A DNA stretch of 42,097 bases. Source: Candidatus Cloacimonadota bacterium (GTDB lineage: Bacteria; Cloacimonadota; Cloacimonadia; Cloacimonadales; Cloacimonadaceae). The position numbers were made by a program, and so were the translations under genes. Position 1 is the first letter of the stretch, and every line of letters starts with the position of its first letter. Location of the stretch: positions 1 through 42,097 of the forward strand of contig JAAYWB010000104.1 of NCBI GenBank assembly GCA_012516855.1, given 5' to 3'. Positions 865 to 19,479 of this stretch are shown here, in pieces. The notes under the pieces were generated by a model that was not told where the DNA came from, made no database searches, and worked only from the letters and a program-made list of their open reading frames with translations.

Positions 865-1532
865 AACGGTGCGCCACCGACGATCTGCGGGGATTGGTCG
901 AGGGTCATGCGCAGCACGATCTCGTTGTAGGCGTCGTTTGCACGCATGACCACTTCGGGAGCGGACTCGAACATGCCGTAGTGACGCAGCGCGCGCCACA
1001 CGATCACCATCTGCCAGCGTAACGGGATGACCGGGACATCGGTGTCGTTCAGCAGGTCCGGCGGGGCGGCGATGTACTGCATGGTCAGCCAGTAGGGAAC
1101 AGCGGGCACGGGGCCGATTTCCAGATTGGTATCCTGATTGACGCTGCAATTCAGCGGCCGGGATGCGGTTGTGCGCCGGGTGCTGAAGCGCCAGTAATCC
1201 CGGAAGGCGGGCCAGCGCATGTTGATCAGGAAGGTCTCGTCGCTGCGGTCCTCGTTGATCGAGACCCGCATACTATCCACGTCCCACTGGACAAGATCGT
1301 CGAGCGCCAGATCGGCGGCGCTGTAGGTGCCTTGGTTCGGCGTCAGTTGGACATGGACTTCCTTGCGGATGAAACCGAAAGTGAATTGGTCGCTGTTCAG
1401 GATTTCACGGTAGGCGGATTTCGACCACTCAACCACCCTTAACGCCTCGCCAGTCTGGTTCTGCGTCGAGGTAATCTCACCAGAAATACCGCCCTCCCGC
1501 ACGACGGCTTGACAAATTTGCAAGAAATTCAT
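858..1532 (-). CDS. Phage head-tail adaptor protein (SU10-adaptor-like)
   Basis: A 224-residue protein beginning MNFLQICQAVVREGGISG, followed by QTGEALRVVEWSKSAYREI. This is the characteristic start of the podovirus adaptor family typified by the SU10 adaptor, which forms the ring joining the portal to the nozzle. The C-terminal third (WRALRHYGMFESAPEVV) is helical, as in the family, and the length is typical. The start overlaps the upstream HNH endonuclease stop as ATGA, and the stop overlaps the next gene. Adaptor and nozzle are therefore translated together downstream of the inserted endonuclease. Function is inferred from family resemblance and position. Confidence 0.7.
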   Translation of the reverse strand: MNFLQICQAVVREGGISGEITSTQNQTGEALRVVEWSKSAYREILNSDQFTFGFIRKEVHVQLTPNQGTYSAADLALDDLVQWDVDSMRVSINEDRSDETFLINMRWPAFRDYWRFSTRRTTASRPLNCSVNQDTNLEIGPVPAVPYWLTMQYIAAPPDLLNDTDVPVIPLRWQMVIVWRALRHYGMFESAPEVVMRANDAYNEIVLRMTLDQSPQIVGGAPLC

Positions 1533-2251
1533 CTAGGTGCAATCTCCATTGTTGGATGGCCGGCGCGAAGCTGTTGATAAAGCGCCTTGTATGTTACACC
1601 GCGATTCAAAGCCAAGGCTTTTATATCGAGATGCTCATTGACTATAAAACCATTTGGCAGGACTTCGACAACCACTCGCGCGCTACCTTTTGTTCTGCCA
1701 CTTCTTTCCTTGTTCATTTTAGTCATGTGCTCACGCACCGCGGTCTTGTCGCGAGTTTCCCAACGCTTTCTTGCTCTCGAACTTTCTTTTGCTTTGAACT
1801 CGGGTGTTGAAGCGGTGATCTTACGACTGGCCACCCTCTTTGCTATTACCTCTGGTGACTTGAGTTTTTCGAGAGCCACCTTAAAACACGGATCGCCTGC
1901 TGCGTGGCGGGTGAGAAAAGCGGCTCTCCGTTTCGCAAGAATCTCCGGTGAATTGCAATGGACGCTGTGCGCCTCACGCAACCAACTGTACAAACGATTC
2001 GTCACACGCTTACCGTGCGGATCACGACACATTGCCATGACGGCAAAGATCAGATTCCCAACCCCCGGATACATCTTGACCAGAAGTTGATGAGCAACAA
2101 AATGCTCGCGTGCCGTAAGGCGAACCAAGTTCTCACGGTCATCTGTGCCACCCATGCAACGCGGGAGAACGTGGTGCTTCTCGCTGTAACCAGAGACCTC
2201 CCGATTACGAGCGTGATTGATCAAACGGGAGTAGTGCTCTGAGTAATTCAT
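1529..2251 (-). CDS. HNH homing endonuclease
   Basis: A 240-residue protein starting MNYSEHYSRLINHARNRE. Residues about 20-60 carry an HNH core (EKHHVLPRCMGG, then NLVRLTAREHFVAHQLL) typical of free-standing phage homing endonucleases. The C-terminus ends in a helix-turn-helix-like tail (LDIKALALNRGVTYKALYQQLR). ATG 2251 is chosen over the in-frame upstream codons because homology to the paralogue at 36475-37212 starts there (MNYENIHNNL, ERHHVVPRCLGG). The gene is more AT-rich than its neighbours and separates the 161-residue virion-region gene from the adaptor. It is likely a mobile intruder rather than a structural gene. Confidence 0.85.
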   Translation of the reverse strand: MNYSEHYSRLINHARNREVSGYSEKHHVLPRCMGGTDDRENLVRLTAREHFVAHQLLVKMYPGVGNLIFAVMAMCRDPHGKRVTNRLYSWLREAHSVHCNSPEILAKRRAAFLTRHAAGDPCFKVALEKLKSPEVIAKRVASRKITASTPEFKAKESSRARKRWETRDKTAVREHMTKMNKERSGRTKGSARVVVEVLPNGFIVNEHLDIKALALNRGVTYKALYQQLRAGHPTMEIAPR

Positions 2252-2272
2252 GCGCGCTATTGTACCTGAATG

Positions 2273-2297
2273 AAAACCGGCCGCACAAGGCGGCCGG
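2273..2297 (-). terminator. Rho-independent terminator
   Basis: Read on the minus strand, an 8-bp perfect stem CCGGCCGC/GCGGCCGG with a 5-base loop is followed by TTTT. It lies 36 bases after the stop of the gene at 2333-2818 and before the HNH endonuclease start, so it would end transcripts of that gene or partially attenuate adaptor expression. Confidence 0.7.
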
Positions 2298-2332
2298 GAA
2301 AGCAAGGGAAACAGGAGGAAGCCCCTGCTTTA

Positions 2333-2818
2333 TTAGGTTGAGGATTGCAGCAGGCTGCGGAGCCAGTCGGCACCCTTCTTGCCTGCCGGGTCGTGGATGA
2401 CGCTGAAGGGATACTTCAGTGACGAACTGCGTTCGATGCGCATGGCGCGGGCACCGTCGGGCTGGGTGTATTCGACCGTCTTGATCGCGTGCTCCTTGCA
2501 CGAGGCAAGGATGGCGACAAACTTGCGGCGAACCTTCTGCGGCTGGCCGCGCAGGAAGTATTGGGTGACCCCGTTGCAAGCGGTGAAGACCGGATTCTCG
2601 GCCTTTTCATCGGTGCTTTCATGCACCATCACTTCGACCATCTGCTCGTTGAACCTCAGTTCTTCGAGATATTGCTTGTCGCCGGCACCGGTGGAGGGCG
2701 CAGGCATGACATCAATTTCGACGGCCGGGGCGCCCTTGAGGAACTCTTCCTCGAAGTCGCTGCTTTTCGGTTGCTGGATTTCGACTTCACTCGCGTCGAA
2801 GGTTTTCTTGGTGACCAT
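2333..2818 (-). CDS. Conserved phage protein of unknown function
   Basis: A 161-residue acidic protein. The N-terminal half is probably disordered and rich in Glu, Asp and Pro. The central part NPVFTACNGVTQYFLRGQ, followed by PQKVRRKFVAIL, resembles a widespread family of lytic-phage hypothetical proteins. No catalytic motif is visible. It has its own promoter at 2847-2874 and is followed by a terminator, so it is a monocistronic unit between lysis and neck genes. Expression as an independent, strongly transcribed unit suggests a stoichiometric virion or host-interaction role, but this is inference. Confidence 0.7.
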   Translation of the reverse strand: MVTKKTFDASEVEIQQPKSSDFEEEFLKGAPAVEIDVMPAPSTGAGDKQYLEELRFNEQMVEVMVHESTDEKAENPVFTACNGVTQYFLRGQPQKVRRKFVAILASCKEHAIKTVEYTQPDGARAMRIERSSSLKYPFSVIHDPAGKKGADWLRSLLQSST

Positions 2819-2846
2819 CAGGTGCTCCTGTTGAAAAGTCGGTGAG

Positions 2847-2874
2847 ACGATAGCCTACATCAATTGGTTGTCAA
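2847..2874 (-). promoter_or_regulatory. Sigma70 promoter for gene 2333-2818
   Basis: On the minus strand, TTGACA (2874-2869), a 16-bp spacer and TATCGT (2852-2847) precede an AGGAG ribosome site. The -35 is perfect. The same -10 TATCGT is used before the coat gene. Confidence 0.65.
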
Positions 2875-3188
2875 GATGCAACCTTCTTCAGCTTCTGTTC
2901 AATGAGGCGTTCGAGAATGAATAGCAGTCGGGCGGCCATGTGACCACCGATGCCGGCGCCGGCGGCACACAGGCTGGGAGGTTGTCCGAATCCGTCGAGC
3001 GTCATAAAAACACCGATACCGACGAATCCGGAAGTGACCATCTCACCGATTAACTCCAAGAGGTTGAAGGCTCTCGTGTGAGAAACCTTCACCTTGGCGT
3101 ACCAATTGACAAAGCCACCACCCATAGCCATAGCCAAGGCGAGCGCCCATGTGGCAAGGTGCCATGATGTTGGGTCTTTTTCTGGCAT
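2871..3188 (-). CDS. LydA-type holin (phage holin family)
   Basis: A 105-residue protein starting MPEKDPTSWHLATWALALAM. It has a first hydrophobic stretch at about 8-24 (ending GGGFVNWY), a second at about 48-62 (SGFVGIGVFMTLDGF) and a third around CAAGAGIGGHMAARLLF, then a basic tail EQKLKK. This three-segment layout with the final GHMAAR resembles LydA/phage-holin superfamily III proteins, small inner-membrane proteins that permit endolysin action. ATG 3188 is chosen because it overlaps the upstream stop as TAATG. Upstream in-frame residues lack hydrophobic or family character. It is the last gene of the lysis cassette. Confidence 0.75.
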   Translation of the reverse strand: MPEKDPTSWHLATWALALAMAMGGGFVNWYAKVKVSHTRAFNLLELIGEMVTSGFVGIGVFMTLDGFGQPPSLCAAGAGIGGHMAARLLFILERLIEQKLKKVAS

Positions 3189-3445
3189 TATTTCTTGAAC
3201 AGCCCGGTCGAGTTTGCCAGAGAGACCACGGCACCGATAGCGGATTGAAGAGCGGGCCACAGCTTCTCGAACGACAACGTGGCGTCGGCCACCGTGTTGT
3301 AGGCAGCCTCGATAATTGAGCGGAGAGCCGCCAGTTTGGCTGCACCTTGGCCGGCGACGGGGAATGCGCCTTCCAACACCTTTACGGCTTCGACGACGGC
3401 CGGGAGAAGGGCCAACACGGCGCGGATGATGATGAGATACTGCAT
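3188..3445 (-). CDS. Small hydrophobic lysis-cassette protein
   Basis: An 85-residue protein with a good ribosome site (TTAGGAG) before ATG 3445. The N-terminus is hydrophobic (MQYLIIIRAVLALLPAVVEA) and the rest amphipathic, with a C-terminal hydrophobic helix (LQSAIGAVVSLANSTG). It is coupled to the LydA-type holin through TAATG. It may be a holin partner or antiholin. No family is recognised with certainty. Confidence 0.6.
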   Translation of the reverse strand: MQYLIIIRAVLALLPAVVEAVKVLEGAFPVAGQGAAKLAALRSIIEAAYNTVADATLSFEKLWPALQSAIGAVVSLANSTGLFKK

Positions 3446-3455
3446 TAGGTTTCTC

Positions 3456-3719
3456 CTAAAATCGGCAACTAGCCGAGACTCCGGTTGTGAAATAGGTCTG
3501 GTTCGATAGGTTTTGGATCGACAGGCTGGGGAGCACTTGCTCTTTCAACAGGGATGGGTAAGTCGGCAGAGGTTGGTTCAGCAACAGGCTTTCCCCTTCC
3601 TGTGTCAGTCCCAACAGGGGGAAGACCGCGCATACCAATTTTTGTTGTTGAGACAACTGTTGCGGTGCCATTGAGCATCCCGACAAGGACAGCGATACCG
3701 CCAGCAACAGTGAGCGCAT
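3456..3719 (-). CDS. Nested Rz1-like outer-membrane lipoprotein (o-spanin candidate)
   Basis: An alternative frame inside the holin-like gene at 3469-3885 encodes 87 residues starting MRSLLLAVSLSLSGCSMAP. This is a short charged n-region, a hydrophobic stretch and a clear lipobox LSGC with cysteine at residue 15. The mature part is Gln- and Pro-containing (PLPTYPSLL) and would be about 73 residues. The frame ends 13 bases beyond the host gene and just before the next start. Nested, out-of-frame lipoproteins are the hallmark of Rz1 spanins in lysis cassettes. Against it, the ATG has no clear Shine-Dalgarno site, and no long coiled-coil i-spanin partner is visible. Confidence 0.55.
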   Translation of the reverse strand: MRSLLLAVSLSLSGCSMAPQQLSQQQKLVCAVFPLLGLTQEGESLLLNQPLPTYPSLLKEQVLPSLSIQNLSNQTYFTTGVSASCRF

Positions 3720-3885
3720 CTTGCGTGGTGACTTGTGGGAAGTATCCGAAGGCGTTGGCGATTGCAAGCAGTGCGCCGAGCAATATTGCGAGCTTTGAGC
3801 CGACGAGTTGGGTGTTTTTCCAAGTGGCAGCATTTGCCAACTCCTTACCAGCGCTGAAAGCCTGAAAGAAATCCTTGATCAACAT
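3469..3885 (-). CDS. Holin-like inner-membrane protein
   Basis: A 138-residue protein with start ATG 3885, eight bases after a strong AGGAGG. Residues about 1-25 (MLIKDFFQAFSAGKELANAA, then TWKNTQL) are followed by two transmembrane segments (SKLAILLGALLAIANAFGYF and ALTVAGGIAVLVGMLNG). A Pro-rich, probably disordered tail follows. This two-helix form starting with a KEL...TWK motif is common next to phage endolysins. It may be the principal holin or a pinholin-type partner of the LydA-like protein. It hosts a nested lipoprotein frame in its 3' half. Confidence 0.7.
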   Translation of the reverse strand: MLIKDFFQAFSAGKELANAATWKNTQLVGSKLAILLGALLAIANAFGYFPQVTTQDALTVAGGIAVLVGMLNGTATVVSTTKIGMRGLPPVGTDTGRGKPVAEPTSADLPIPVERASAPQPVDPKPIEPDLFHNRSLG

Positions 3886-4004
3886 TGACCGCACCTCCTA
3901 TCTTCCACTTCATGTTCGTTCAACCAGGGGCCGAGAGTTGTGACCCAGCCGTAAATCGCGACAGAGAAGATCACGACGAAGATTACAGCAACCAGCCAGC
4001 GCAC
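3879..4004 (-). CDS. 41-residue single-pass membrane protein in lysis cassette
   Basis: A GTG start at 4004 follows GGAGG by seven bases. The product begins MRWLVAVIFVVIFSVAIYG, one transmembrane helix, followed by a short hydrophilic tail WLNEHEVEDRRCGQC. Its stop overlaps the start of the holin-like gene (ATGTTGA), and it begins directly after the endolysin stop, so it fills the only gap in the cassette. It could be a minimal inner-membrane spanin-like or antiholin peptide. This is inferred only from topology and position. Confidence 0.5.
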   Translation of the reverse strand: MRWLVAVIFVVIFSVAIYGWVTTLGPWLNEHEVEDRRCGQC

Positions 4005-4005
4005 C

Positions 4006-4449
4006 TCACACCCTCCACTTTGCAACCGCTTGAGCCAGACTCAGACCTTCGCGAAACTGGCAATGGGCTGTCTCCCGAAGACTTCCTGTCCAGCGCCCGG
4101 CCCATTCAAGATCGAGCGATTCCGCAATCTTACCACAGGTTTCATAGAGACCCTTGTCACTCCACGCAGCTTTTCCGCCAACAAGGGGTACGAAGTCAAA
4201 CGCCGCCCGGAAATTGTGCCAACTCTGGCCGCCGCGGGCATTGGTCACGATGTCGCCCATCGGCTTCGACCGACGTGGATTTGGGCCAGTCGTCGTGCGC
4301 CCCTGCGCGTAAAGAACCTCCTGCTCCTTCTCGGAGCGATAGGTGCAATAGATCAGAACCTCGATGCCGAACGTCGCACACTTGGCGACGAACATCTCCG
4401 CGCGCTTGCGGGTTTCCGGGTTCAGGTCAAGCAGGCTTCTGGACGCCAT
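4006..4449 (-). CDS. Endolysin, L-alanyl-D-glutamate peptidase (M15C, VanY-like)
   Basis: A 147-residue protein with the zinc peptidase signature of the M15 family. SWHNFRAAFDF carries the first His and the Asp ligand, EWAGRWTGS lies before the catalytic region, and AHCQF carries the second His. The N-terminal part (LDLNPETRKRAEMFV, then CTYRSEKEQEVLYAQGRT) is typical of T5-like endolysins, and the length is close to theirs. The enzyme should cleave the L-Ala-D-Glu bond of peptidoglycan stem peptides. No signal peptide is present, so release to the periplasm would depend on the downstream holin-type proteins. Confidence 0.88.
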   Translation of the reverse strand: MASRSLLDLNPETRKRAEMFVAKCATFGIEVLIYCTYRSEKEQEVLYAQGRTTTGPNPRRSKPMGDIVTNARGGQSWHNFRAAFDFVPLVGGKAAWSDKGLYETCGKIAESLDLEWAGRWTGSLRETAHCQFREGLSLAQAVAKWRV

Positions 4450-14165: not shown

Positions 14166-14546
14166 TCAGAAAATTTCGCCATCTGCTTCCCACGGCGCCA
14201 CAAGGATTTCGTCGTCACCGGCATCCATGTTTCCGAAGGTGAGGTCGGCCATCGCGCCGCCGCTGGACTGCGCCTTCTTCATCCCGACAGCGAGTCCCTG
14301 AAAGGCGTCGCTGAAGTTGGAGTTACTCACCAACAGCCCGTTTGCCAGATAGCAATGATGGTTTTCTACGGTCAGGTCGAACACCAACGGGCTTTCCTTG
14401 CTTGCGTCGAAGCGCCGCACGCTTGCAACTGTCGTCGCATGTTTTCTTTCTCGTAGGGAAAGGAGTACGAAACGGGCGCCCACACTCTTGGCATATAACT
14501 TCAACCCATTCAAGATTTGCCCAAACCGCTCTTCCATTCTGCTCAT
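14166..14546 (-). CDS. Intein C-half fused to C-terminal terminase segment (split TerL, part 2)
   Basis: The frame encodes about 75 residues of intein C-half followed by 51 residues of terminase. The intein part ends VFDLTVENHH, then CYLANGLLVSN, matching intein blocks F and G. The penultimate position is Ser instead of the usual His, and Asn is last (codon 14322-14324). The flank begins SNFSDAFQGLAVGM, the final nuclease motif of large terminases with its conserved Asp. ATG 14546 is chosen because GGAAGGAAG lies seven bases or fewer upstream and no later Met precedes the intein core. The frame differs from that of the upstream terminase cistron and of the GIY-YIG gene that overlaps it. Trans-splicing to the 15092-16642 product is inferred. 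Confidence 0.75.
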   Translation of the reverse strand: MSRMEERFGQILNGLKLYAKSVGARFVLLSLRERKHATTVASVRRFDASKESPLVFDLTVENHHCYLANGLLVSNSNFSDAFQGLAVGMKKAQSSGGAMADLTFGNMDAGDDEILVAPWEADGEIF

Positions 14547-15433
14547 GCCACTTCCTTCCTTCCTCGGATGAATGCCAAGCCTTCGCGGCTTCTCGTGCGA
14601 CCTGTAGGGCCGCGTGGGTTTGTTCGAGTCGTTCGCCTGTTTGCTTCTTGCCTTTGTGAGCAAGGCTTAAAGCCGCACCGACGTGGGGCGGGCGCTTCAC
14701 ACCGCGACGTAGCTCGGTCATCCGAGCTACGTTCTCCATCATTGCCGGATTCGTTTCCCAATTCTTGCGCATGGTCTCGGCAGCAATTCTGCGCCGCTCT
14801 TCCGAGACCGGGAGCTTCTTGTTCCGATACTCATCGAACGCGACCCGCGTCTTCTCAGTGATCGGGCGCCCGCTTGATCCCTCACCGCCGGCCGTCATGT
14901 TGGCAAGCTCAGGATGGTCAGCGATCATCTTCTGTTCAAGCGCGAACGCCGCGTCCTCGTCTTCACAAGGATGGGTCGTCACGATGATGTTCTCCGGACC
15001 ATGCTTCTTGATGATCGAGCGATGATGCGGGTTGCGACCGTGGGTGAAGTTCCACGCGCGCCGTCCCCGACCCTTACCCACATAGAACACGCTACCGTCC
15101 GGCCGCGAGTGCGTGTAAGCGTAGAAAGATTTGCTTTGCGCCATTTCTGAACAACCTCCAAATTGGTGATTTACCTTCAAGGATGGTATCACCAATCTTC
15201 AGGCTATGCAACTCAATGAGTCCGTCAAGTGTGAATACTTTGTGCTCCGGTGTGCCAGTCAATGTGCGCCCGTCGCCAAGGGTTACCGTGATCAGTTCGG
15301 TCGCGCGTTTCACAGGTCCGGCAAAACTCACCAGCGCGCGCCCGGCCGGGGTTACAACCCAATCCCCCTCACGCACTTGCTCGATCGGGACCGTGGCATG
15401 TGTGAGTTTGACCATCGTCCCGGCCACCAAACA
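14322..15433 (-). other. Split-intein/homing endonuclease element interrupting terminase
   Basis: The element runs from the intein Cys1 codon (15431-15433) to the terminal Asn codon (14322-14324), 1,112 bp, so its length itself breaks the reading frame. It contains the intein N-half in frame with terminase, a GIY-YIG gene with its own Shine-Dalgarno site, and the intein C-half in a third frame. Removing it joins TPLHDKN to SNFSDAF and restores a terminase motif of normal spacing. Confidence 0.8.
14323..15144 (-). CDS. Free-standing GIY-YIG homing endonuclease within split terminase
   Basis: A 273-residue protein starting MAQSKSFYAYTHSRPDGS. The GIY-YIG core is FYAYTH, then VFYVGKGRGRRAW. Next come NUMOD3-like segments (SGRPITEKTRVAF and ALSLAHKGKKQTGERLE) and a zinc-finger tail with CQECGRPF and TCDDSC. 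ATG 15144 follows TGGAGGTT by about ten bases. Upstream it overlaps the end of the intein N-half cistron by 53 bases. Downstream its last ~75 codons overlap the intein C-half in another frame, with its stop on the intein's final Asn codon. It is probably the homing enzyme that spreads the split-intein element. Confidence 0.85.
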   Translation of the reverse strand: MAQSKSFYAYTHSRPDGSVFYVGKGRGRRAWNFTHGRNPHHRSIIKKHGPENIIVTTHPCEDEDAAFALEQKMIADHPELANMTAGGEGSSGRPITEKTRVAFDEYRNKKLPVSEERRRIAAETMRKNWETNPAMMENVARMTELRRGVKRPPHVGAALSLAHKGKKQTGERLEQTHAALQVAREAAKAWHSSEEGRKWHEQNGRAVWANLEWVEVICQECGRPFRTPFPTRKKTCDDSCKRAALRRKQGKPVGVRPDRRKPSLLSGKRAVGE

Positions 15434-16642
15434 GTTCTTGTCGTGCAGGGGTGTCAGGCTGAAGCACTGGCGCTTCTTGTCATAGACGAACTGATACCCC
15501 CGCAGCGCGCGCAAGCCCTCGGCGCACTTCTCGTTGTCGAACCAGCATCTCGCCAGCAGCATCCGGGCGGCGTCGATCTGATCCGACTTGGCGAGCTTGG
15601 GCACGATCTTGATGTTCCGCATCCCCAATGATCTGAGGGTTTGCAGCCGGCTGACCCCGGTGCCCAACTCCCGCACATTCGTGTCGTGCGGCATCAGGTG
15701 CGGGCCGAAGTATTTCGCGTAGTCCAGCTTCCTGAGCCAATCGACAAAGTGGCTCAAGGGTTGGCCCGACTCTTCGTAGGCGTCGAGCAAATGCACTTCT
15801 TTCCCCACGGTCTGCGCCGTCCAGATGCTCGTGGTGTCCGACATCCCCAAGTCCCAAGCCGTGATGACCGGGCCGCCGTCGGGTTGCCACGGCACTTTCG
15901 TGATCTGCTTCTGGACAAGGTAGGGCAGCAGGATGCGGCCGGTGACCGTGGCGTTAGGGTCACACAAAAATTCAGCCGCGTAGGCTTCTTCAGTCATGCC
16001 GCGCTTCAGGTCTTCCAATTCTTCAGGCGGCAGGATGCCCGTCTTATCTACGGGGAGAAGTTCGCTGAACCAACCGCTGCCCGGCACGGATGCCTTCTGG
16101 TGCAACTCCCACAGCGGATTGTCGAAACTTTTGACTGTACCTGAGAAGACCGCAAAACCCTGCCTGTCGGCCAATGCCGGACGGATGATTGCGTCCCAAA
16201 CGTATGGTGCGATGTCCTGAAATTCATCGAGCACAACCCCGTCAAGGAACAGGCCACGCAGCTTCTCGGCGTTTTCCGCACCAAGCAGCATGATCGTGCT
16301 GCCCGTCCGATTCACGTTCTTCGGATCAGGTAGGGTAACCGTCAGATTCTGCTCGCTGATCTTGTACCCCGGACACTTGCTCAGAAAGTTCGTGTAGTCT
16401 TTGGCCATTTGCCAAAGAACCGATCTGGCCTGCACTTGGAATGGGCACATAATTGCAAACTGCTGGCGTAACCCGTCGGGCCTTGGATGCAGCGCCCGGA
16501 TGATCAACTCGTTCAGAAGCGCTGTCGATTTACCCAGCCTCCGGTGCGCGATGATCACGGCCCACCGCTCTTTTCTGTTGTGGAACGGAACCATCACATC
16601 GCGCGGCTGATAGGTATATTTGAGTGCTTCCTGCGCGCTCAC
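15092..16642 (-). CDS. Terminase large subunit N-part fused to intein N-half (split TerL, part 1)
   Basis: Residues 1-403 form the terminase ATPase and most of the nuclease. The Walker A variant is AHRRLGKST (32-40), Walker B is VVLDEF (136-141, Asp139/Glu140), and the coupling motif is FSGT. The first nuclease Asp is in AWDLGMSD (near 263). From Cys404 an intein N-half begins: CLVAGTMVKL is block A, and GTPEHKVF is block B with the T-x-x-H. It ends about 113 residues later after LKIGDTILEGK. GTG 16642 is chosen because it overlaps the upstream stop as GTGA, with AGGAAGG ten bases before. The last catalytic motif is missing here and lies in the cistron at 14166-14546. Confidence 0.85.
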   Translation of the reverse strand: MSAQEALKYTYQPRDVMVPFHNRKERWAVIIAHRRLGKSTALLNELIIRALHPRPDGLRQQFAIMCPFQVQARSVLWQMAKDYTNFLSKCPGYKISEQNLTVTLPDPKNVNRTGSTIMLLGAENAEKLRGLFLDGVVLDEFQDIAPYVWDAIIRPALADRQGFAVFSGTVKSFDNPLWELHQKASVPGSGWFSELLPVDKTGILPPEELEDLKRGMTEEAYAAEFLCDPNATVTGRILLPYLVQKQITKVPWQPDGGPVITAWDLGMSDTTSIWTAQTVGKEVHLLDAYEESGQPLSHFVDWLRKLDYAKYFGPHLMPHDTNVRELGTGVSRLQTLRSLGMRNIKIVPKLAKSDQIDAARMLLARCWFDNEKCAEGLRALRGYQFVYDKKRQCFSLTPLHDKNCLVAGTMVKLTHATVPIEQVREGDWVVTPAGRALVSFAGPVKRATELITVTLGDGRTLTGTPEHKVFTLDGLIELHSLKIGDTILEGKSPIWRLFRNGAKQIFLRLHALAAGR

Positions 16643-17544
16643 AGCTTGCACCCCTTCCTGTTCGCAATCTCTTCAGCGCCAACGCCACCTTTTCTGATGT
16701 AGCGATTTACTGTTGCACTGCTGACGCCAAATTTGTCACCAACTTCTTTCAGACTCAAGCCGGAACGCCAAAGTGCGATGGCCAGATCAACATCAAACCT
16801 CGCCCGCCGCGCCTCGTTAGCAGCGTCTTTTGTTGATACCTGCGCGCGCTTCGTCGCACCTTTCGCGGCAACATAGGAAACCCCGGCGCATACTGCTGCG
16901 GCTGATACCGTCATCCCCGAGCGAACAAGGCTCAGGACGGTCGCCTCTTGATCGTCGGTGAGAACACGTCGAGACTTTGCGCCCGCACTCATGCGTTCCT
17001 CTTTGGTGACTCCCAGCGCCCCGAGATGGTCGCCGACCACGGTTGGGTGACAACCAAAATGTCTGGCTATTGCTTGCAGGCGGTGGCCGGCATTGAACAT
17101 CTCCAACATTTCCTTCTTCGCCAAGTCGTCGTAGCGTGAGTTTGCCCCTCCCGCACCGGCCGGGATTCTCATATTGTACTCAGGCTCGGCGATCGCAATA
17201 AAAGCACCTTCTGCCGAAACCAACTCTTCCACCGTGACACGTTCGACCAACACTTCAACTCGCATCCCCGCCCATCCATGCTTGCGTAAAGCGGGATAGA
17301 TCAAGGATGCGTGGTTGCGGTTGCGGTGAGGGTGCATGGCCGCCGACAAGTGTTCGGCTAACCGGGCAACCAACGGGCGCCGGGTCGATCCGATGTAGCG
17401 TTTGCCGTTGGCGAGCGTGAGTTGATAGACCACCATCCGTAGCATAGCTGACGGGTTGTTGTGCATTATCTCAGCCGCAACCAAACAGCCATCCCACTCT
17501 GCGCTACCCAACCGCTTTGCTTTCGATGCAAGGGACTCAGCCAT
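16639..17544 (-). CDS. GIY-YIG homing endonuclease with helix-turn-helix repeats
   Basis: A 301-residue protein. A 36-residue leader (MAESLASKAKRLGSAEWDG) precedes the GIY-YIG core VVYQLTLANGKRYIGSTRRP at about 38-57. The second half holds three helix-turn-helix segments (LQAIARHFGCHPTVVGDHL, VSAAAVCAGVSYVAAKG, and SLKEVGDKFGVSSATVNRYI), a common DNA-binding layout for phage GIY-YIG enzymes. ATG 17544 overlaps the upstream stop. A later Met (17436) begins exactly at the catalytic domain but has no ribosome site. The leader might be a remnant of an older gene fused to the endonuclease. It lies directly before terminase. Confidence 0.8.
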   Translation of the reverse strand: MAESLASKAKRLGSAEWDGCLVAAEIMHNNPSAMLRMVVYQLTLANGKRYIGSTRRPLVARLAEHLSAAMHPHRNRNHASLIYPALRKHGWAGMRVEVLVERVTVEELVSAEGAFIAIAEPEYNMRIPAGAGGANSRYDDLAKKEMLEMFNAGHRLQAIARHFGCHPTVVGDHLGALGVTKEERMSAGAKSRRVLTDDQEATVLSLVRSGMTVSAAAVCAGVSYVAAKGATKRAQVSTKDAANEARRARFDVDLAIALWRSGLSLKEVGDKFGVSSATVNRYIRKGGVGAEEIANRKGCKL

Positions 17545-17875
17545 TGCGCCTCGCGAGACCCAGCGCCACCTGCCTCGCCTGCGTCTGGCTGATGCTGAAC
17601 ATCGCGGCAATGTCCTTGAACTTGACGCCCAACTCGCGCAGTCCCCTGATCTCGATCACCTGCGCGGTGGTCAGCTTGGATAACCCATGCCTCTCGCCCG
17701 ATGCCCGCCCGGGTTGCGACAGCGGCCCGGCCACGTTGGCCCGGGTATCGCCGCGGATGATCTTGCTGATGTTGGTCTGCCTGCATTGGTACAGCTTCGC
17801 AAGCTCGGCCTGCGTGACACCGGAGGCGTAAGCCTCGCGGATTTCAATCACACTTTGGTCACTGATCGTTGTCAT
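17537..17875 (-). CDS. Small protein with two helix-turn-helix motifs
   Basis: A 112-residue protein containing two similar HTH units: VTQAELAKLYQCRQTNISKI and KFKDIAAMFSISQTQARQVA. The linker GERHGLSKLTTAQVIEIR resembles the DNA-binding tail of HNH homing endonucleases, but no nuclease domain is present. Its position just upstream of terminase could suggest a small terminase or a regulator. An HNH-tail derivative is equally plausible. GAGG lies seven bases before ATG 17875. Confidence 0.65.
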   Translation of the reverse strand: MTTISDQSVIEIREAYASGVTQAELAKLYQCRQTNISKIIRGDTRANVAGPLSQPGRASGERHGLSKLTTAQVIEIRGLRELGVKFKDIAAMFSISQTQARQVALGLARRNG

Positions 17876-17884
17876 GGTGTTGCC

Positions 17885-18733
17885 TCACCCTTCGGGTCCA
17901 TAATTTCCACTCTGCCGATCGTACCACATTTCGGCTGCTATGCGCAAAGTGCTCATATGGATTTCGAGGGTATCGTTGTAGTCCTCGGCATATCCGCCCG
18001 CCAGAGTGATGACCGTCGGCACCCCGAGGTTGAGCACCGCCCGATCCCGCTCCATCAACTGCTCCTTGGTGTATGGCCCCATCCCGAGGGGGTCATGCTC
18101 CCAAGCATCGGCGCCGGCCTGATAGATGATCACGTGCGGGTCGAAATCGAACACTTCGGCCTGCAACAGTTCGCCGAACTTCCACACCGGCAGGACGTGC
18201 CGCTGGAAATACCGGACGTTCTTCATCAGGTCGGGCTTCCGGTCCATGATGTCCAGACATCCGTTGCCGGTGTGCGCATCCCCATCGACAATCAGATACC
18301 GCATTTCGGGATTGAGGGCTGGCGCCAACATCAGGAAGTTGAACGTGCAGAACCCGCCGCCGTGGGCATAGCACGCATGGTGCGCCCCGGATGTCAGGCT
18401 GACGGTGATGGCCTCCCTCGCCAGCGCATCATCCGCGGCATCCAGAAAGTTGCCCGCGGTGAGCAGCAGCGCCCGGGCCTGCTCGGGTGTGCTGTGCTTG
18501 CCGAAGCCGTTCGGGGTGACGCCGTTCAGGACATCCATCACATACAGCGGGTCATGGATCATGCTCAACACCCCGGGCAAGACGGCCTCTGGCGTGACCA
18601 CTTCGGTATTCGGGATTGGTTCGTTCTTCAGGCGCTCGAACAGATAGCTCGGCTTCACCGGGCTTTTGCTGTAGCTCTTCGGATCGAAGCACTGCTCGGG
18701 GTGGTAGTAGATGTTCAGGTTGGTGGTGATCAC
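17885..18733 (-). CDS. Histone deacetylase / acetylpolyamine amidohydrolase superfamily protein
   Basis: A 282-residue protein with the full set of deacetylase-fold landmarks. SGAHHACYAHGGGFCTFN carries the tandem active-site His118-His119, and VDGDAHTGNG gives zinc ligands Asp152 and His154. GADAWEHDPLG supplies Asp209 and the family DPLG, and LAGGYAED carries the transition-state Tyr248. In HDACs the ligand motif is D-x-H-H-G, and here the second His is Thr. Members hydrolyse acetyl groups from lysine, polyamines or other amides. The substrate is unknown. GTG 18733 follows AAGGAG. It has its own sigma70 promoter. The length is somewhat short for the family but the core appears complete. Confidence 0.85.
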   Translation of the reverse strand: MITTNLNIYYHPEQCFDPKSYSKSPVKPSYLFERLKNEPIPNTEVVTPEAVLPGVLSMIHDPLYVMDVLNGVTPNGFGKHSTPEQARALLLTAGNFLDAADDALAREAITVSLTSGAHHACYAHGGGFCTFNFLMLAPALNPEMRYLIVDGDAHTGNGCLDIMDRKPDLMKNVRYFQRHVLPVWKFGELLQAEVFDFDPHVIIYQAGADAWEHDPLGMGPYTKEQLMERDRAVLNLGVPTVITLAGGYAEDYNDTLEIHMSTLRIAAEMWYDRQSGNYGPEG

Positions 18734-18761: not shown

Positions 18762-18790
18762 ATAATAACACAACTTCAACCCACTGTCAA
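18762..18790 (-). promoter_or_regulatory. Sigma70 promoter for the deacetylase-like gene
   Basis: On the minus strand, TTGACA (18790-18785), 17 bp ending TGTGT, and TATTAT (18767-18762), 28 bases before the GTG start. It overlaps the last codons of the upstream HNH gene. Confidence 0.85.
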
Positions 18791-19479
18791 GGATGGTGTT
18801 TTTTCCACAATTTCCAACGAGCGTCCGAGGTTATCCTCAGACGATAGTCGCCATGAAACTCCCACCAAAACTGGTATTTGCCGCTGAGAATGTCCTGCTC
18901 GGCAGCAGCAAGGTTGGCGGCCCGACCCTCTTCGGTGTGAATGTAGCGGGGAGTGTATGGTTTGCGCGGCTTCTTCTCTTTTGGTTTTGGCGGCGCCGGC
19001 ATTTCCAAACCGAGTTCCCACGGTTCGCGCGGCTCAGGCTTAATGCGCCGCTTCAACTGTTTTTGTGCCCATATCAAGGTGCGGGAAACCCCATAATGCT
19101 CCGTCAGGGTTTTAACCTTAACACCAAGTGACTGAGCGTAGAGGATGTCCGATACGTCCTGATCGCTTAGCACCATGCTCGAACGCGCAATGCGCCCTTT
19201 CATCGCAGCATCCTGCATGTTCATACGGGCATCTCCGACGAACAAGTGGGCCGGGTTACAGCACGCCGGATTGTCACAATAGTGGAGCACCCATTTGTCC
19301 GGATCGGCCGGGTGAATTCGTGGGATCATCCCGGCAAGGAACGCCGCAACCCTGTGCGCGCTGCGCGCCTTGTTCTCGTGATTGAAGCGACCATACCCCC
19401 TGCTGCACTTATACCCTAGCCACGGCCAACAGGCGTCGGGTCCGCCTGAGCGATCCACCTTGTCGTGAAAGTTTTTCAT
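18787..19479 (-). CDS. HNH homing endonuclease
   Basis: A 230-residue protein. The first 100 residues carry the typical HNH_3-like layout. ACWPWLGYKCSRGYGRF is followed by SAHRVAAFLAG, then VLHYCDNPACCNPAHLFVG and MNMQDAAMKGRIARS, with paired Cys for zinc. An HTH-like segment (VKTLTEHYGVSRTLIWAQ) and a basic Pro/Lys-rich tail follow. It is the first gene of the leftward arm, with a close sigma70 promoter. It is probably a mobile endonuclease placed at the edge of the divergent region. Confidence 0.85.
   Translation of the reverse strand: MKNFHDKVDRSGGPDACWPWLGYKCSRGYGRFNHENKARSAHRVAAFLAGMIPRIHPADPDKWVLHYCDNPACCNPAHLFVGDARMNMQDAAMKGRIARSSMVLSDQDVSDILYAQSLGVKVKTLTEHYGVSRTLIWAQKQLKRRIKPEPREPWELGLEMPAPPKPKEKKPRKPYTPRYIHTEEGRAANLAAAEQDILSGKYQFWWEFHGDYRLRITSDARWKLWKKHHP

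What the first reader, a model, noticed from the sequence alone, without database searches (positions are those of the whole stretch)
14166..16642. Large terminase gene fractured by a split intein with a free-standing GIY-YIG gene between the halves
Seen: the terminase cistron (15092-16642) changes at codon 404 into an intein N-half (CLVAGTMVKL, then GTPEHKVF) and stops. A second cistron in another frame carries intein blocks F/G (VFDLTVENHH, LLVSN) followed by SNFSDAFQGLAVG. Joining TPLHDKN to SNFSDAF restores the last nuclease motif of terminase with exact spacing. A GIY-YIG gene with its own ribosome site lies between. Known: fractured phage genes with split inteins and intervening endonuclease genes have been described for other phage proteins. 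Inference: the two products are spliced in trans to make functional terminase, and the GIY-YIG enzyme spreads the element.
Basis: partly seen in the sequence, partly recalled or inferred. Interest (0 to 1): 0.92.

Follow-up and report, generated by a model that had tools for sequence, protein, structure and literature searches.

The report
Terminase gene split by overlapping intein-nuclease
A phage's DNA-packaging motor gene is broken into two pieces that probably rejoin as protein through a split intein, with a DNA-cutting 'homing' gene overlapping both breaks in a third reading frame; the same layout recurs in a second phage and appears to derive from a large group of unbroken terminase inteins that hide their nuclease gene in an overlapping frame.

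Summary
On the minus strand terL runs to codon 403, becomes a class-1-type intein N-half (15433-15095) and stops. A GIY-YIG/zinc-finger ORF (15144-14323) follows, then an intein C-half (14546-14322) joined to the last terminase nuclease motif. In-silico joining restores intein-free relatives exactly. The three frames overlap: the nuclease shares 53 nt with IntN and covers all of IntC. An independent 59.8-kb viral contig (L192) has the same architecture, frame offsets, IntN stop and IntC start at about 50-60% protein identity, so sequencing error is very unlikely. Of about 160 related phage inteins, nearly all terminase, almost all are unbroken, and 117 of 120 unique ones hide a long ORF, typically an HNH nuclease, in the same alternative frame. 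The window nuclease keeps their zinc-finger tail but has GIY-YIG in place of HNH, and the intein frame is broken. Best reading: a trans-splicing split terminase intein with a GIY-YIG homing endonuclease, derived from an overprinted cis intein. Split TerL inteins (AceL-TerL) and a GIY-YIG-fractured gene (AceL NrdHF) are known, so this is a new variant of a known kind. The overprinted family, which I did not find described, is the larger result. Splicing and homing are inferred, not shown.

The parts
15434..16642 (-). terL 5' part: N-extein of the large terminase (403 residues from GTG 16642), ending ..TPLHDKN
   Evidence: phrog_2 terminase 8.4e-28, phrog_2472 4.1e-30; about 73-75% identity in the best segments to TerL of L001 and L002
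15092..15433 (-). Intein N-half (IntN, 113 residues plus stop): Cys1, block B TPEH; its last 17 codons overlap the nuclease gene
   Evidence: HMM of relatives E 2.6e-21; TIGR01445 and Intein_splicing weak hits; 53% identical, same length and same stop in L192
15155..15159 (-). Shine-Dalgarno GGAGG of the GIY-YIG gene
   Evidence: anti-SD duplex -10.0 kcal/mol, best 0.5% of ATGs in the window
14323..15144 (-). GIY-YIG / zinc-finger putative homing endonuclease (273 residues); [quoted passage not shown]
   Evidence: phrog_314 homing endonuclease 1.5e-13; PDB GIY-YIG chains 9u75/9u7u E 0.0014/0.012; 62% identical in L192
14840..15126 (-). GIY-YIG catalytic region: FYAYTH, FYVGKG, R, E and N of the family conserved
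   Evidence: alignment with L116 and L192
14420..14580 (-). WHxSEEG + CxxC..CxxxC zinc-finger module, shared with HNH enzymes hidden in cis terminase inteins
   Evidence: HMM E 1.4e-24; residues 191-290 of the ORF are 52-54% identical to L112-L115
14551..14565 (-). Purine-rich Shine-Dalgarno of the IntC cistron (GAGGAAGGAAGGAAG)
   Evidence: anti-SD duplex -7.9 kcal/mol, best 2.2% of ATGs (which placed the start one base off); the same sequence element precedes the ATG in L192
14322..14546 (-). Intein C-half (IntC, 75 residues from ATG 14546): blocks F and G, terminal Asn
   Evidence: TIGR01443 4.1e-6; HMM E 3.7e-14; same length and start in L192
14166..14321 (-). C-extein: SNFSDAF.., last nuclease motif of terminase (51 residues plus stop)
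   Evidence: aligns without gap at the junction to L001, L002 and L023

Best explanation
This is a fractured terL. One transcript carries three overlapping cistrons. The first makes terminase residues 1-403 fused to IntN. The second, in the +1 frame with its own ribosome site, makes a GIY-YIG/zinc-finger homing endonuclease. The third, one further frame on and with its own ribosome site inside the nuclease gene, makes IntC fused to the last 51 residues of terminase. IntN and IntC associate into a HINT domain and splice in trans, giving a 454-residue terminase whose last nuclease motif (SDAF) is restored. The GIY-YIG enzyme probably cuts intein-free terL and drives copying of the whole cassette. 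The element descends from a cis-splicing terminase intein in which an HNH homing endonuclease was overprinted in the -1 frame of the intein linker. Exchange of HNH for a GIY-YIG module filled the linker with stops in the intein frame and left a split intein, while the zinc-finger tail still overlaps IntC in the ancestral relative frame. Shown by sequence: the architecture, its conservation, the empty site, and the family relationships. Inferred: a shared transcript, translation of all three cistrons, trans-splicing, cleavage and homing, and the direction and order of events.
For: Three frames and junctions. In-silico splice product matches L001, L002 and L023 without a gap at the junction. Profile hits to both halves and to the zinc-finger tail, with nothing else in the window above noise. 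Independent contig L192 (IMGVR_UViG_3300020045_013036) has the same architecture, offsets, IntN length (113), IntC length (75), stop and start, at 53% (IntN), 62% (GIY) and 48% (IntC) identity; substitutions in the non-overlapping nuclease are concentrated at third positions (45/44/109), as under purifying selection, and IntC-core changes follow the IntC frame (7/9/15). Strong Shine-Dalgarno sites for GIY and IntC. No second terL match in the genome bin. Cis relatives: 117 of 120 unique inteins carry their longest alternative ORF in the +2 relative frame, median 192 codons, versus 33 in the other frame. In nine close pairs the overlap changes mostly at intein position 2, which is nested position 3 (158/389/211), but IntN at intein position 3 (68/56/169). 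The window and L192 pair (support 0.985) inside a cis-intein clade (0.77-0.86). AlphaFold2 of a cis relative gives a confident HINT fold at the two ends around a disordered overprinted linker; best PDB match gp41-1 intein, E 1.4e-7. GIY+zinc-finger genes also stand immediately upstream of terL genes (L208, L210), a plausible source. Biochemically active split TerL inteins and a GIY-YIG-fractured NrdHF split intein are published (PMC11766414, PMC7891396).
Against: No experiment shows splicing or cleavage. The openness of the IntC frame under the nuclease is not in itself significant (P 0.2-0.5 under synonymous shuffling). Pfam does not recognise the GIY-YIG domain, and its AlphaFold model is low-confidence and matches nothing. 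The window insertion point is three codons upstream of that in L192, an unexplained shift. The placement of the window and L192 within the cis clade has only moderate support, and an ML bootstrap tree timed out.
Confidence: 0.85

Rival explanations
1. Sequencing or assembly error: the real gene is one frame, a cis intein with an in-frame or out-of-frame nuclease.
For: Metagenome-assembled contig; reads were not available.
Against: The IntC frame has several stops between 15180 and 14666 and the IntN frame many after 15092, so one or two indels cannot open it. L192 has the same offsets, stop and start at about 50-60% identity. Long ORFs in the rest of the window are intact.
Confidence: 0.02
2. 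A decayed, non-splicing intein in a dead or dying phage genome.
For: The intein frame is broken; such decay is expected occasionally (e.g. stops in the linker of L185/L186).
Against: IntN, IntC, nuclease and both exteins are all intact and conserved in two diverged phages; portal, major head, primase and helicase ORFs are intact; decay would not preserve start, stop and ribosome sites.
Confidence: 0.05
3. Gene in pieces: the two terminase polypeptides work as a non-covalent heterodimer without splicing, as in phage Aeh1 NrdA.
For: Precedent of a homing endonuclease that splits a nucleotide reductase into two working chains, as cited in PMC10448857.
Against: Complete conserved splicing motifs on both halves (Cys1, TPEH, block F, Asn, +1 Ser) would have no reason to persist; intein core identities of 53-63%.
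Confidence: 0.06
4. Programmed frameshifting gives a single polyprotein in which the nuclease sits inside a cis intein.
For: Frames are adjacent and overlap.
Against: It needs two +1 shifts per product; each downstream ORF has its own start and strong Shine-Dalgarno site, also in L192. A systematic slippery-site search was not made.
Confidence: 0.02

Closest known systems
Fractured genes with split inteins (Dassa et al. 2009, NAR 37:2560; full text not held, known from citations and memory)
   Same: A phage gene broken into two ORFs, each with an intein half, and a homing-endonuclease ORF between.
   Different: Here the nuclease overlaps both halves in a third frame, is GIY-YIG with a zinc-finger tail, and has relatives in which the intein is still unbroken.
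AceL NrdHF split intein (PMC7891396)
   Same: Gene fractured by a split intein with an intervening GIY-YIG putative homing endonuclease; 98-residue IntN and 48-residue IntC; trans-splicing shown.
   Different: Class 3 mechanism (Ala1) in a ribonucleotide reductase; here Cys1 (class 1 type) in terminase. Whether its genes overlap in frames was not examined.
AceL-TerL, GOS-TerL and Cat-TerL split inteins (PMC11766414)
   Same: Natural split inteins in the large terminase, with demonstrated trans-splicing.
   Different: Atypical split with an IntN of 25-37 residues; here IntN is 113 residues, split where homing endonucleases usually sit.
ShiLan domain, hidden HNH in a phage methylase (PMC11855218)
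   Same: Homing nuclease in an alternative frame of an insertion that reads through in the host frame; its stop lies in the last four bases (TAAC), as here.
   Different: The authors found no splicing domain there; the terminase elements are clear inteins, and the window form is split with GIY-YIG.
Cis terminase inteins with an overprinted HNH gene (e.g. Rhodobacteraceae phage LS06-2018-MD07, Tetrasphaera phage TJE1, Acinetobacter phage Highwayman; L112-L115)
   Same: Same region of terminase, same zinc-finger tail, same relative frame of nuclease and IntC.
   Different: Unbroken intein frame, HNH instead of GIY-YIG.

Membership tests
Fractured gene with split intein | Host gene in two ORFs, one ending in IntN, one starting with IntC | tested here: met
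Fractured gene with split intein | Homing-endonuclease ORF located between the intein halves | tested here: met
   GIY-YIG ORF 15144-14323, but overlapping both halves
Fractured gene with split intein | Exteins joined give an intact protein matching relatives with an empty site | tested here: met
Fractured gene with split intein | Protein trans-splicing | not testable with these tools
   needs expression of both halves
Class 1 intein | Cys or Ser at position 1, TxxH in block B, C-terminal Asn, Cys/Ser/Thr at +1 | tested here: met
   Cys1, TPEH, LLVSN|S; profile and fold of relatives
GIY-YIG homing endonuclease | GIY-YIG motifs with Arg, Glu, Asn and profile similarity | tested here: met
   phrog_314 1.5e-13, PDB 9u75 0.0014, motif alignment; but Pfam PF01541 not hit
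GIY-YIG homing endonuclease | GIY-YIG fold | tested here: inconclusive
   AlphaFold2 pLDDT 50.6, no significant Foldseek match
GIY-YIG homing endonuclease | Site-specific cleavage of the intein-free allele | not testable with these tools
   needs a cleavage assay
Cis terminase intein with overprinted nuclease | Intein frame open throughout, nuclease nested in the +2 relative frame | tested here: not met
   stops in the middle; only the zinc-finger/IntC part keeps the +2 relation
AceL-TerL type atypical split intein | Very short IntN (25-37 residues) | tested here: not met
   IntN 113 residues

The most novel reading that the evidence does not exclude
Phage terminase inteins form a large, undescribed class that overprints its homing endonuclease in the -1 frame of the intein linker, so the nuclease evolves while the intein frame only has to stay free of stops. 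When the nuclease module is exchanged (HNH to GIY-YIG here) the intein frame is lost and a split intein with three overlapping genes results. This would be a concrete evolutionary route from cis to split inteins, with intact, intermediate and split states all extant.
Probability: 0.6. Interest if true: 0.78.

Novelty: new variant of a known kind. Interest (0 to 1): 0.64.

Why it matters
The origin of split inteins is an open question. Here unbroken inteins with an out-of-frame nuclease, a form with the same frames but stops in the linker (L185/L186), HNH splits (L137, L191) and GIY-YIG splits (window, L192) can be compared directly. It also offers new canonical-length split inteins for protein engineering, and shows that in-frame intein annotation misses a hidden nuclease in most terminase inteins of this type.

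Tried and rejected
A viral-contig search with the nuclease alone found no relative; alignment queries found L192. No close DNA relative among isolated phages. No nuclease relative among plasmids or in the host order genomes. AlphaFold2/Foldseek of the nuclease was uninformative. The test that openness of the IntC frame alone proves coding was not significant, so the argument rests on conservation. An IQ-TREE run failed once and then timed out; FastTree was used. Programmed frameshifting and sequencing error were considered and rejected as above. Dassa et al. 2009 is not held in the library.

Full report
WHAT IS THERE. On the minus strand terL starts best at GTG 16642 and runs to ..TPLHDKN (15434). 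Codon 404 (15433) is Cys1 of an intein N-half that ends at the stop 15094-15092. A second ORF with a strong ribosome site (GGAGG, best 0.5% of ATGs) starts at ATG 15144 and ends at 14323. A third ORF has ATG 14546 behind GAGGAAGGAAGGAAG; it encodes 75 residues ending ..VFDLTVENHHCYLANGLLVSN (14322), then SNFSDAFQGLAVG.. to 14166. Relative frames are 0, +1 and +2. The middle ORF overlaps IntN by 53 nt and covers all of IntC; [quoted passage not shown]

IDENTITY OF THE PARTS. The first ORF is a large terminase (phrog_2 8.4e-28). NCBIfam intein_Cterm hits IntC at 4.1e-6, and intein_Nterm hits IntN weakly. Profiles I built from relatives hit IntN at 2.6e-21, IntC at 3.7e-14 and the zinc-finger tail at 1.4e-24, with no other segment in the window better than 0.3. 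The middle ORF matches phrog_314 homing endonuclease (1.5e-13) and a PDB GIY-YIG protein (0.0014); FYAYTH, FYVGKG, R, E and N motifs align with other GIY-YIG enzymes. Pfam missed it and its AlphaFold model was poor.

EMPTY SITE. Joining the exteins in silico gives a product that aligns without a gap at the junction to three terminases with no intein at this site: TPLHDKN|SNFSDAF against TPLHDRS|SNFADAY (L001), TPLHDKW|SNASDSF (L002) and TPKHDAH|SNFSDAF (L023). Only one terL match exists in the whole genome bin.

INDEPENDENT COPY. Contig IMGVR_UViG_3300020045_013036 (L192) repeats the layout: TerL-IntN 1365-3047, GIY/zinc finger 2956-3825, IntC cistron from ATG 3599, with the same frame offsets. 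IntN is 113 codons and IntC 75 codons in both, without indels. Identities are 54% for the terminase N-extein, 53% IntN, 62% nuclease, 48% IntC. Nuclease changes outside the overlap are 45/44/109 by codon position; in the IntC core they are 7/9/15 in the IntC frame. The same ribosome-site sequence precedes the IntC ATG. The window insertion point is three codons upstream of that in L192; I cannot explain this shift.

RELATIVES. A search with intein alignments returned 80 viral and 8 genome loci, and a search with the nuclease alignment 80 more. In 141 loci (120 unique proteins) both ends are in one open frame, and 16 more were confirmed by eye. These include named phages (L006, L015, L016). In 117 of the 120 the longest alternative ORF is in the +2 frame (median 192 codons, versus 33 in the other); motif scans show it is typically an HNH/zinc-finger nuclease. 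The exceptions are two mini-inteins and L131 (+1). With synonymous codons shuffled the intein frame would stay open with median probability 0.007 per locus (the loci are related, so these are not independent). In nine close pairs the overlap changes mostly at intein position 2, which is nested position 3 (158/389/211), whereas IntN changes at its own third position (68/56/169). So the nested nuclease is the constrained product there, and the intein linker mainly has to avoid stops. AlphaFold2 of the L113 cis intein agrees: confident HINT ends and a disordered linker; best PDB match gp41-1 intein.

SPLIT FORMS. L137 and L191 have TerL-IntN, a free HNH gene and IntC-TerL(C) in separate ORFs. L185/L186 keep IntN and IntC in one frame but with stops in the linker. 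These group with L131 (0.968), apart from the window/L192 pair (0.985), which lies within the cis clade of L112-L114, L119, L121, L123, L130 and L125 (0.77-0.81). Splitting therefore probably occurred at least twice. The last 95 residues of the window nuclease are 52-54% identical to the HNH enzymes of L112-L115, with the same relative frame to IntC. GIY/zinc-finger genes also stand directly upstream of terL genes (L208, L210), a possible source of the GIY-YIG module.

MECHANISM. The most likely reading is three overlapping cistrons, protein trans-splicing to a 454-residue terminase, and homing driven by the GIY-YIG enzyme. Architecture, conservation and relationships are shown; translation, splicing, cleavage and direction of evolution are inferred.

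LITERATURE. Split terminase inteins AceL-TerL, GOS-TerL and Cat-TerL splice in trans but have short IntN fragments (PMC11766414). AceL NrdHF is fractured by a GIY-YIG gene (PMC7891396). An out-of-frame HNH in a methylase insertion without a splicing domain is the ShiLan domain (PMC11855218). I found no paper describing inteins with overprinted nucleases, but the library lacks most subscription papers.

Noticed in passing
L024-L191, e.g. L006:3467-4279 with nested 3736-4218: Large family of unbroken phage (mostly terminase) inteins with an HNH/zinc-finger nuclease overprinted in the -1 (+2) frame; 117 of 120 unique cases share the frame.
   Followed up: yes
window 16639-17610 (-): Second GIY-YIG nuclease with helix-turn-helix domains directly upstream of terL (Pfam GIY-YIG 4.4e-5, HTH_23 1.3e-10).
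   Followed up: partly
window 18787-19479 (-): Free-standing HNH homing endonuclease (zf-His_Me_endon 4.5e-7), so the phage carries at least three homing-type nucleases.
   Followed up: no
window 17885-18733 (-): Histone-deacetylase-domain protein (PF00850 1.7e-25) in the phage genome; similar ORFs lie beside terL in L001 and L002.
   Followed up: no
L002:903-3383: Terminase with an in-frame intein at the Walker A site (HRRAGKR|LALDTEVP..THN|STALI) lacking an N-terminal Cys; looks like a class 3 intein.
   Followed up: no
L137:238-3601: Terminase with two inteins: a cis intein at Walker A (GGNR|C..HHN|TGKT) and a split one at the last nuclease motif with an HNH gene between.
   Followed up: partly
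L131:1158-3452: Only cis intein found with the nested HNH in the +1 frame; it groups with the split forms L137, L185 and L191.
   Followed up: partly
window 15434/14321 versus L192 (IntN from 2706, IntC from 3599): Insertion point differs by three codons between two otherwise homologous cassettes (HDKN|SNFSDAF versus HDQFSNG|SDAF); unexplained.
   Followed up: no
L112-L115 and window intein ends: Nested nuclease stop lies in the last bases of the insertion (TAAC in the window), as reported for the ShiLan methylase insertion; possible common origin.
   Followed up: no
L208:2832-3461, L210:3974-4654: GIY-YIG/zinc-finger nuclease genes immediately upstream of, and overlapping, terL genes.
   Followed up: partly
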